Source: Morinoia aosen (Eukaryota > Arthropoda > Malacostraca > Amphipoda > Talitridae). Taken from it: DNA of 64,000 bases. Position numbers and translations under genes: made by a program. Numbering within the stretch: the stretch's first letter is position 1; every line of letters starts with the position of its first letter. The DNA is taken from positions 4,461,177 through 4,525,176 of the forward strand of contig CM059559.1 in the NCBI GenBank assembly GCA_030386875.1, written 5' to 3'. The notes under the pieces were generated by a model, which was not told the origin of the DNA, did not search any database, and saw only the letters and a program-made list of their open reading frames with translations. Below are positions 42,944 through 46,000 of the stretch, in pieces.

Positions 42944-43078
42944 ATGGAGCGCCTGGCTGCTCCGGCTCCCGTGCACCACCACCACCACAACGCCAACACC
43001 AACACCTGGGGCAACTCCGCCACCCTCCCCCATCCCCGCTCTCATCCCACCGTGCACCAGCACCACTACCAGTACCAC
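42944..43078 (+). CDS. Csk: Csk exon 1 (candidate first coding exon)
   Basis: 45 codons, His/Pro/Asn-rich, starting [15 protein letters not shown] and ending HQHHYQYH. The ATG has G at -3 and G at +4. An in-frame TGA at 42935-42937 lies just upstream, so this is the first possible ATG in its frame. The donor is CAC|gtgcgt at 43079. It leaves phase 0, which matches exon 2. The frame closes at 43130-43132, and of the two donor-like sites before that stop only 43079 keeps frame with exon 2. The donor region is reiterated downstream as a 28-bp minisatellite. The low-complexity composition matches exon 2. A different first exon, or a start inside exon 2, remains possible. Confidence 0.6.
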
Positions 43079-46000
43079 GTGCGTACCTTAGTCTCTACCT
43101 GTACCACTACCAGTACCACGTCCGTACCTTAGTCTCTACCAGTACCACGTGCGTACCTTGTCTCTACCAGTACCACGTGCGTACCTTGTCTCTACCAGCA
43201 CCACGTGCGTACCTTGTCTCTACCAGCACCACGTGCGTACCTCGTCTCTACCAGCACCACCTGCGTACCTTGTCTCTACCAGCACCATGTGCGTACCTTG
43301 TCTCTACCAGCACCACGTGCGTACCTCGTCTCTACCAGCACCACGTGCGTATCTTGTCTCTACCAGCACCACGTGCGTACCTTGTCTCTACCAGCACCAC
43401 GTGCGTACCTTGTCTCTACCAGCACCACGTCCGTACCCGTGTGTAGAAGTACTGTGTGCGTACCCGTGTGTTGAAGTAATATCTATTTCAGTACTCAAAT
43501 GTCTACATGTAGAGCGCGTGCTTAGTGTCCAAGTCTCACGTGCGTACCCCAGTTCTCAGTACATCAATCCTCATCAGTACCAAGTGCGTGTCTTACTGTC
43601 CTCAGTGCGTGAGTGTAAGTACTACGCACGTACCCTCTTATTTTCACAACCCTAGTACACATATTAACAACACGTGCGCACTCTCCTTGTCGAGGTACTG
43701 TAAGTTCCGCGTATACTCTTTGTTTACCCTCTGTGTGTTCGTTCTGTAAAATTTAGGTGTATTGTTTTCAGTACCCTTGTGTGCAAAAGTTACTTTATAC
43801 GTGCCAGCGTGTTTTCAATACCCTAGTGTGCAAAAGTTACTTTATACGTGCCAGCGTGTTTTCAGTACCCTAGTGTGTGAAAGTACCTCGTGCGTGCCAT
43901 CCATTTTCCAGTACCCTATGGTGCACAAGTACCTAATGTATGCCATCCTGTTTTCAGCATCCATGTGTGTCAAAGCACCTCGTGAGTGCCTTGTCGCTAG
44001 TTCGTGCCTCGTGCACGCGCTTAGCCTAGTGTTGCATGCATAGTTCAGACCTCCGCACTAGTGCTCGTGTGTTGTAGTTAGTGTTGTAGCAACCCTGCTT
44101 TTATTCAACGTTTGAGCTCGTCTTATTTCGTGTGCAGGCAATCAACTTGCGGCGAGATTATCTATTTTTAGTCCTCACAGTGCTTCGAAACTGGCTCATC
44201 GGCTGCAGTCTAGCCTCGTGAATGCGAAGGAGTTGCTAAATTCCTCTTCTTCCAATCTGCAAATCACTCCCCTTCATTGATTGTTATTTTTAACAGCTAA
44301 ACATGGTACACTCTGATATGTTGTAGCTTAGCTCGCTGATTTTAGTGTTTAAGAGAAAGATCGTCTATTGTTATCCACTTCATGATCTGTTTTTTATTAT
44401 TTAAATTTAATGTGAAATTCCTTTCTAGAAATTCTATAAAATGTATAGGGCTAACACATACATGTGGCCCAAATTTGTTACTAAGTTTTTAGGCCTTTTG
44501 TAAATGTGTCGACGATAATAAAGATTTAGCTCGGACTAATTTTCATCGAAGGTAACGGAGGTGTTTAATTTTTTGGTCAGTGTTCGCTCTGAAGAAAGGT
44601 GAAAGGGGGGATAATCTCGACGGAGAATTAACACGTTCGTATTTACAGCCTCTGCACGCGTCTTGAAACTGCTTTTGTAAGCAAACGAACGGGTTAGATT
44701 AAAATACAAATTCACCGATGGGGAAAATGTGTAGTCTTGTGCTGAAAGGTAGGTAGGCCTTCTTTTTGTTGAAATAAAAGGATTTTTATCTTGTTAAAGG
44801 ACGATTTTTTTCGGTTCATTTTTCGTGTTTTTCAGCACCTCTGACTTTCTTCTTCGACCGTTACCTTGTTTTATAACCTTCCTTTTTAACTTATTGTTTC
44901 TATGCACATGGGACCCTGCGCGGAAACACTCTTTGTGCATAGATTCCGCGTTTTATTAACTCCCCAATAAACGGTGCCTTCATCCTTTCTCTCTTTGAAC
45001 ATCTTTGTTGTGGCAAGGGAGGCTAAAACTAACTTATAATCATCAATCATTAAAATGTAATTCATTTCTCCTACCGTGTGCTACTACTTCATGAGGTGCA
45101 AATATTGTTTAAAAGGTTGTTCTTTGGCATGCTAACCACTCTCGTAGCTAAACTCCGACCATGTTAGCGTTACTTATCATTCTACTTCGTTTACCTCGGC
45201 CATTTGTGGTGTTGATGCACTCATTTGTATGGATGTTTATTTATATTTGTACTTACAAACCATGTATAAATTCTTATTTATTATATAAGCTCTCATTTAC
45301 ATGTATCTATTTGTAAGATGCAAACTTATCGTTGGTGTGTGCAGGTACAGCAGCACCCCAGTTGCAACAGCAGCGGCGGCGGAGGCGGCGGTCGGGATGT
45401 GCTCAATACGAGTCTAGACTCTTCCTTAGGAGCCGGGCCTGGGTGGCATCCGTCGTCCACCCATGAGTCGTTCAGCGTGCTCCCTCCACCTCCTGCACAA
45501 GGGTCCTCCTCACACCTCTCGGCTGCTGGGGCCACGTCCAACAACCCTCTCAGCCACAGCTACTCCGGCCCCAGCCTCCTCAACACGAGCATCTCCAGCA
45601 ACCACAGCACCAGCAGCAACGCTCTCCACACCCTGCACCACAGCTCTTCTTCACACAACGCCCTGCACCACAGTGCTGGACCAAGGCCCCAGTTGCATCA
45701 CAACGCACCGCAGCACCACAGCGCGCTGTCGCAGCATCACAGCACAGCGCCACAGCCGCTCACCAGCAACCTACAGGGACACTACCGCCACCCCAGCGCC
45801 GGCATGGACAAGAAGAAGGAGGTCAAGCTCAACTCCATGGAGTGAGTGGTCTTCAGTTCCGTGTTTGCGTTGGCTAATGCGATTCACCTTCCTTCACATT
45901 TGAATTCATTATCATGCCCACATTTTATAGAAGAGATGGAAAGGAAAAATGTTACTGGTGGTAATTGAAGAGCTGTTGGAGGGCTAAAAGGTGAACGAAA

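What the first reader, a model, noticed from the sequence alone, without database searches (positions are those of the whole stretch)
43050..43440. The exon 1 splice donor has been amplified into a minisatellite
The last codons of candidate exon 1 and its donor (TACCAC|gtgcgt) are the seed of about 13 tandem units of 28 bp. Most units carry CAC|gtgcgt preceded by a pyrimidine run ending in ccag. Each unit therefore looks like an acceptor, a 6-nt in-frame micro-exon (His-His) and a donor. Only the first donor keeps frame with exon 2. Changes in unit number could alter donor competition or intron recognition. The sequence pattern is direct; the effect on splicing is inference.
Basis: partly seen in the sequence, partly recalled or inferred. 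Interest (0 to 1): 0.72.

Follow-up and report, generated by a model that had tools for sequence, protein, structure and literature searches.

The report
Repeat array covering a splice site
In an arthropod's Csk kinase gene a short DNA stretch that seems to span the end of the first coding exon has been copied about a dozen times into the intron, giving spare-looking splice sites; similar arrays are known in human genes, so it is a neat but not unprecedented case.

Summary
The repeat is real: 13 tandem positions at 43056-43437, one 41-bp step, one 29-bp step, then ten of 28 bp. Its first copy contains the last 23 nt of a predicted exon. The host gene is an arthropod Csk kinase (joined exons 3-10 match solved Csk, E 1.7e-134). 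Exon 1 (42944-43078) rests on reading frame and codon bias only. Its donor word AC|GTGCGT is also used at the homology-anchored exon 6 junction, so it is credible, if weak. GT is kept at 12 of 13 positions, GTGCGT at 10, CAC|GTGCGT at 9. Only the first donor gives an open frame with exon 2. A chain of micro-exons is unlikely: neighbours would be 22 nt apart. Minisatellites are common here (10.8% of 200 kb sampled, 25.6% of the window), and random placement puts some window array on an exon edge in 12.6% of trials. Close precedents exist: the human ABCA7 25-bp VNTR that includes the exon 18 donor, and the IFI6 minisatellite. I read it as a probably neutral amplification across an exon-intron junction, with the first donor dominant: a new member of a known kind.

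The parts
42944..43078 (+). candidate coding exon 1 of the Csk gene (45 codons, ends in phase 0, donor CAC|GTGCGT)
   Evidence: open frame joined to exon 2 in phase 0; GC3 39 of 45 against 9 of 17 in the in-frame continuation, Fisher p 0.014; the only one of 5 in-frame GTs with a positive score (weights recalled). No homologue or transcript could be tested.
43056..43148 (+). first 41-bp duplication (2.3 copies) whose first copy spans the predicted exon 1 / intron 1 junction
   Evidence: copies 38 of 41 identical, 23 nt in the predicted exon
43107..43437 (+). 28-bp minisatellite, 11.8 copies, units with a donor-like site and a ccag 6 nt before it
43438..44050 (+). decayed related sequence and a second, 46-47 bp array (43763-43990) in the same intron
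   Evidence: GTGCGTACC with up to 2 mismatches 8 times in 43441-44040, Markov mean 2.4, maximum 10, 3 of 1000 reach 8
45345..45841 (+). Csk exon 2 (predicted), His/Ser/Pro-rich N-terminal extension
   Evidence: splices in phase to the SH2 exon; no Pfam match
47242..47374 (+). Csk exon 3 (SH2 start)
   Evidence: Pfam SH2 3.1e-16; Csk best
48635..48721 (+). Csk exon 4
   Evidence: no Pfam match on its own
49261..49374 (+). Csk exon 5
   Evidence: no Pfam match on its own
50551..50687 (+). Csk exon 6; its homology-anchored donor GAC|GTGCGT shares AC|GTGCGT with exon 1
   Evidence: ungapped alignment across the exon 6/7 junction to Csk 1k9a
51656..51820 (+). Csk exon 7
53096..53291 (+). Csk exon 8
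57190..57276 (+). Csk exon 9
58764..58856 (+). Csk exon 10 (the exon or exons after it were not located)
   Evidence: (22.1 bits, just under the 23.1 cut-off)

Best explanation
A tandem duplication that happened to span the exon 1 / intron 1 junction of a Csk kinase gene (first copy: 23 exonic plus 18 intronic nt) was followed by expansion of a shortened 28-bp unit into the intron, in a genome where minisatellites are common. Splicing is most likely still done at the first donor (43079), the only one that leaves an open frame; the copies are tolerated because they lie in the intron, and at most a few percent of transcripts use a later copy and are lost through premature stops. Shown: the array, its units, the frame consequences, the gene identity from exons 3-10. 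Predicted from frame and composition: exons 1 and 2. Inferred: the order of events, the dominance of the first donor, neutrality.
For: Array and unit layout. Gene: exons 3-10 joined match solved Csk chain 1k9a over 338 of 339 residues, E 1.7e-134. Exon 1 joins exon 2 in phase, with GC3 of 39 of 45, close to the 287 of 335 of exons 3-10 (summed), falling to 9 of 17 past the donor. The same AC|GTGCGT donor is used at exon 6. Units nearest the exon carry the odd spacings (41, 29) and the exon-like T, and distal units are near-uniform 28-mers, as expected if the array grew away from the exon. Minisatellites are general: 28 arrays in 20 hand-picked 10-kb stretches, 21,512 of 200,000 bases (one stretch is wholly array; 10 of 20 have none), and 19 arrays in the window. 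Random placement puts an array on an exon edge in 12.6% of 5000 trials. Precedent ABCA7: next-unit donor used at 2 +/- 1%.
Against: No transcript, no second individual and no relative's Csk gene could be examined. Exon 1 rests on intrinsic evidence only. The donor pairs poorly with U1, so identical copies could compete more than in a gene with a strong first donor. GTGCGT is kept in 10 of 13 positions, which with 95% unit identity is what a young array gives, but does not exclude selection. The unit's donor word is better than those of most arrays (4 of 47, this one included, reach its score). A 17-nt word of the unit recurs exactly in an array of another unit length on contig C2, which a purely local origin does not explain unless it is chance.
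Confidence: 0.72

Rival explanations
1. The array is a working donor cluster: later donors compete with the first, and every use of a later one gives a stop, so unit number tunes how much full-length Csk is made.
For: 9 of 13 positions carry the identical 9-mer CAC|GTGCGT; all later uses give a frameshift or the TAG at 43130; the first donor is weak. In ABCA7 a donor-spanning 25-bp VNTR changes splicing with length, through skipping of the next exon.
Against: No transcript data; in ABCA7 next-unit donor use was 2 +/- 1% and did not vary with length; later copies lack the exon's upstream sequence.
Confidence: 0.13
2. Each unit is an acceptor, 6-nt exon and donor, so that Tyr-His or His-His micro-exons are added in frame to the His-rich N-terminus.
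For: ccag 6 nt before 12 of 12 later positions and GT at 11 of 12; 11-12 of 15 pyrimidines before that AG in the three units measured, against 8 at the exon 2 acceptor and 8-13 over the nine acceptors of exons 2-10; 6 nt keeps frame.
Against: Neighbouring micro-exons would be 22 nt apart (28 minus 6), shorter than introns known to be spliced in animals (recalled), so at most scattered single ones could be used; 6-nt exons normally need dedicated enhancers (recalled).
Confidence: 0.04
3. The function, if any, is at the DNA level: the array is a cluster of CACGTG E-boxes in the first intron and acts as an enhancer.
For: 9 of the window's 23 CACGTG sites lie in the array.
Against: Any array repeats whatever 6-mers its unit holds; 28 bp does not keep sites on one helix face; no binding data.
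Confidence: 0.06
4. Exon 1 is not an exon; the array is an ordinary intergenic or 5' intronic minisatellite and the donor-like word is a coincidence.
For: No homologue or transcript supports exon 1; the donor is weak.
Against: 45-codon open frame, in phase with exon 2, GC3 39 of 45 (P 1.4e-10 at the intron's GC of 0.40), lower GC3 after 43078. The peptide is His-rich, so composition alone may inflate that P.
Confidence: 0.05

Closest known systems
Human ABCA7 intron 18 VNTR (PMC5954066; passages and section 21 read)
   Same: 25-bp unit, starts with the GT of a real exon's donor, use of the next unit's donor gives a frameshift and premature stop
   Different: There the array begins at the GT, here the unit also includes 23 predicted-exon nt; ABCA7 is polymorphic and measured in RNA, here one assembly and no RNA; different gene, phylum and unit sequence
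Human IFI6 (6-16/G1P3) minisatellite, Turri et al. 1995 (original not held; seen as a citation in three papers, with one sentence on it in PMC4526556)
   Same: A minisatellite whose repeat units supply additional splice donor sites at an exon end
   Different: From memory the IFI6 unit is 12 nt and in frame, so alternative donors add 4 residues; here 28/29/41-nt steps and a stop make later donors non-productive
Internal tandem repeats at exon-intron boundaries of human segmental-duplication genes (PMC2812944; passages read)
   Same: Minisatellites, units of 30 bp on average, altering gene structure, some at exon-intron boundaries
   Different: Those are compared between paralogues with transcript support
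[quoted passage not shown] abstract read)
   Same: A tandem duplication crossing an exon-intron boundary carries splice signals with it
   Different: Here no new intron is shown and the copies stay inside a predicted existing intron

Membership tests
minisatellite | tandem head-to-tail units of about 10-100 bp | tested here: met
   28 bp x 11.8, 95% matches
minisatellite | length polymorphism between individuals (if VNTR) | not testable with these tools
   one assembly only
donor-spanning VNTR of the ABCA7 / IFI6 kind | the array includes the real donor of a coding exon | tested here: inconclusive
   first unit covers 43056-43096, with the predicted donor at 43079; exon 1 itself has no transcript or homology support
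donor-spanning VNTR of the ABCA7 / IFI6 kind | later units retain donor sequence | tested here: met
   GT in 11 of 12 later positions, GTGCGT in 9 of 12
donor-spanning VNTR of the ABCA7 / IFI6 kind | later donors are used in transcripts | not testable with these tools
   no RNA data
Csk kinase | SH2 and tyrosine kinase domains most similar to Csk among solved structures | tested here: met
   joined exons 3-10: best match 1k9a Csk; SH2 piece alone: Csk best; kinase exon 8 piece alone: an EGFR chain with two kinase stretches ranks first by total score, Csk chains next
Csk kinase | N-terminal SH3 domain, present in the mammalian protein (typical; I do not treat it as defining) | tested here: inconclusive
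   predicted exon 2 joins the SH2 exon directly; none of 40 SH3 matches in the genome lies in the window, but a domain split by introns or another first exon could be missed

The most novel reading that the evidence does not exclude
The array is a length-tunable attenuator of a growth-restraining kinase: copies of a weak donor compete with the only productive one, so gain or loss of units between individuals changes the fraction of Csk mRNA lost to premature stops or to skipping of exon 2.
Probability: 0.08. Interest if true: 0.6.

Novelty: new member of a known kind. Interest (0 to 1): 0.33.

Why it matters
If later copies are used, it would be a natural dose series for how identical, repeated 5' splice sites compete, in a conserved kinase of a genome rich in minisatellites. 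If not, it shows how a first donor wins over a dozen nearly identical copies placed just downstream.

Tried and rejected
A dispersed repeat family. The array has 22 other matches in the genome, at 64-80% identity. I looked at 4 of the 22 (L002, L003, L004, L006): they are arrays with units of 33, 11, 25 and 30 bp. They share short words with this unit: 17 nt exactly with the C2 array (L002, opposite strand), 13 with L006, 9 with L003, 6 with L004. The 17-nt word, searched through the genome with up to 1 mismatch, gave 41 places: 12 in this array, 17 in the C2 array and 12 single places elsewhere; the word read backwards, the control, gave 5. So the words recur, but no family of like arrays appeared; whether the Csk and C2 arrays share an origin is open. 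The other 18 matches were not inspected.

A retrocopy of Csk that would show the exon 1-2 junction: none found. Of 6 matches, 5 are the gene itself and one is a weak SH2 match on C1; exon 1 with its upstream flank has no second match.

A known structured RNA: no Rfam match at gathering level in 36000-64000. Identification from exon 2 alone by solved structures gave only chance xylanase matches.

A control on many kinase exons of the same genome, to count arrays at exon edges, was not done because loci could not be cut out. The random-placement test uses only this one gene's exons (19 edges) and rejects placements that cover more than 25 nt of an exon, so it is rough. The 20 sampled stretches were picked by hand.

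Papers: searches were not aimed at Csk plus repeats; (Csk, minisatellite, intron, splice) listed 3 papers, on hTERT repeats and autoimmunity by their titles and abstract starts, which I did not open. The library holds open-licence papers only, so I do not claim that this array is unreported. PMC3045353 (passages), on fish genes, gave no donor-spanning repeat in the passages shown.

Full report
Observation. Tandem Repeats Finder reports a 28-bp repeat of 11.8 copies with 95% matches at 43107-43437 and an overlapping 41-bp repeat of 2.3 copies at 43056-43148. Aligned on the donor position there are 13 positions, spaced 41, 29 and then ten times 28. GT is present at 12 of 13, GTGCGT at 10 of 13, CAC|GTGCGT at 9 of 13. 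Unit 7 has lost the GT, units 2 and 13 read GTCCGT, unit 8 reads CAT|GTGCGT. The consensus unit occurs 10 times with up to 3 mismatches in the window and not at all in 100 shuffles.

What it lies in. Stop-to-stop pieces downstream and Pfam show an SH2 domain and a tyrosine kinase spread over exons. Joined exons 3-10 (339 residues) align with the solved Csk chain 1k9a over residues 1-338, E 1.7e-134, ahead of all other chains. The SH2 piece alone also has Csk first; the piece around exon 8 alone has an EGFR chain with two kinase stretches first and Csk chains next. So the gene is a Csk kinase. The genome is an arthropod's: 115 matches to the cuticle family Chitin_bind_4. The insect odorant-receptor family 7tm_6 gave none, a result the tool itself calls inconclusive. 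The spliced frame stays open from ATG 42944 through exon 10; the end of the gene was not located. Exon 2, a His/Ser/Pro-rich extension, joins the SH2 exon directly, and no SH3 was found in the window.

Is exon 1 an exon? Its evidence is intrinsic. The frame is in phase with exon 2, and third positions are G or C in 39 of 45 codons, as in exons 3-10 (287 of 335, summed), falling to 9 of 17 in the in-frame stretch after 43078 (Fisher p 0.014). Of five in-frame GTs in the open stretch, 43079 is the only one with a positive score by a recalled weight matrix. The word AC|GTGCGT is used again in the same gene: exon 6 ends GAC|GTGCGT, and the protein alignment across the 6/7 junction to Csk is ungapped. 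The donor is weak: U1 pairing energy is -0.9 kcal/mol, and 57.5% of the 4715 GTs of the window pair at least as well. The same value holds for exon 6.

Origin. The first 41-bp copy takes in the last 23 nt of exon 1 and 18 nt of intron and is repeated with 38 of 41 identities. The later 28-mers look like that unit shortened by about 13 bp. Odd spacings and the exon-like T sit next to the exon, and distal units are near uniform. This fits growth from the junction into the intron, but it is inference. The next 600 bp hold decayed relatives (GTGCGTACC with up to 2 mismatches 8 times; Markov mean 2.4, maximum 10, 3 of 1000 at least 8) and a further 46-47 bp array, so the intron start has a longer history of such copying. 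Against a purely local origin stands one result: the 17-nt word CTACCAGCACCACGTGC of the unit recurs exactly in a 33-bp array on contig C2. Outside these two arrays it has 12 places with one mismatch, against 5 places for its backward reading. This may be chance in 2 Gb; I leave it open.

Is it more than chance? As a repeat, plainly. As a repeat on an exon edge, hardly: minisatellites (10-100 bp, 3 or more copies) cover 16,360 of 64,000 bases of the window and 21,512 of 200,000 sampled bases (one of 20 stretches is all array, 10 have none). Random placement of the window's 19 arrays puts one on an exon edge in 12.6% of 5000 trials. A donor word as good as this one is found in 4 of 47 array units including this one, as expected if the seed held a real donor.

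Consequences for splicing. Using a later donor never gives a normal protein: position 2 shifts the frame and meets a stop at codon 83, and positions 3-13 run into the TAG at 43130-43132 (position 7 has no GT). Positions 5, 8 and 11 are multiples of three but share that stop. The micro-exon reading is in frame (Tyr-His in 3, His-His in 9 of 12 units). In the three units measured the AG is preceded by 11-12 pyrimidines of 15, against 8 at the exon 2 acceptor and 8-13 over the gene's nine acceptors. But neighbouring micro-exons would be separated by 22 nt, too short for known animal introns (recalled), so a chain is very unlikely.

Comparison with the known. The ABCA7 VNTR (PMC5954066) is a 25-bp array whose first two bases are the exon 18 donor. 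The paper reports use of the next unit's donor at 2 +/- 1%, not dependent on length, and exon 19 skipping that rises with length. The IFI6 minisatellite is cited as giving multiple splice donor sites (original not held). Boundary repeats that alter introns are reported for human duplicated genes (passages), and a tandem duplication across an exon-intron boundary for a potato gene (abstract). So this is a new member of a known kind; the inclusion of 23 exonic nt in the unit and the arthropod Csk setting are the differences.

Verdict. A local amplification across a predicted exon-intron junction, most likely neutral, with the first donor used. Whether unit number matters is open and cheap to test with cDNA and genotyping.

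Noticed in passing
45345-47374: The Csk gene seems to lack an SH3 domain: a His/Ser/Pro-rich exon 2 joins the SH2 exon directly, and none of the 40 SH3 matches found in the genome lies in the window; a domain split by introns could be missed.
   Followed up: partly
43136-43415 and G000:C2:69277345-69278021 (L002): A 17-nt word of the 28-bp unit, CTACCAGCACCACGTGC, recurs exactly (opposite strand) in a 33-bp, 24-copy array on contig C2, and a 13-nt word overlapping it in a 30-bp array on C15. Chance or a shared minisatellite core; not explained.
   Followed up: partly
39067-39534 and 40827-42008: Two arrays with the same 21-bp unit (GCCTTACTCGCCGGGCGTGCA, rotated), 22 and 56 copies, flank a stretch with GAGCG-like 5-bp repeats just upstream of exon 1.
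   Followed up: no
31633-36833: An 18-bp array of 289 copies, over 5 kb, open in five of the six frames across its whole length.
   Followed up: no
43107-43437: The unit carries the E-box CACGTG; 9 of the window's 23 such sites lie in 43050-43440.
   Followed up: partly
50301-50528 and 51222-51541: Other arrays end 22 nt before exon 6 and 114 nt before exon 7 of the same gene.
   Followed up: no
L017 (C10:40404040-40414039): A hand-picked 10-kb stretch is entirely one tandem array.
   Followed up: no
genome G000, e.g. C8:14087198/15496403, C7:47332480/49481431, C2:33433311/37466534: A number of domain matches come as pairs with equal scores on one contig, hundreds of kb to over 10 Mb apart, as from large duplications or unmerged haplotypes in the assembly.
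   Followed up: no
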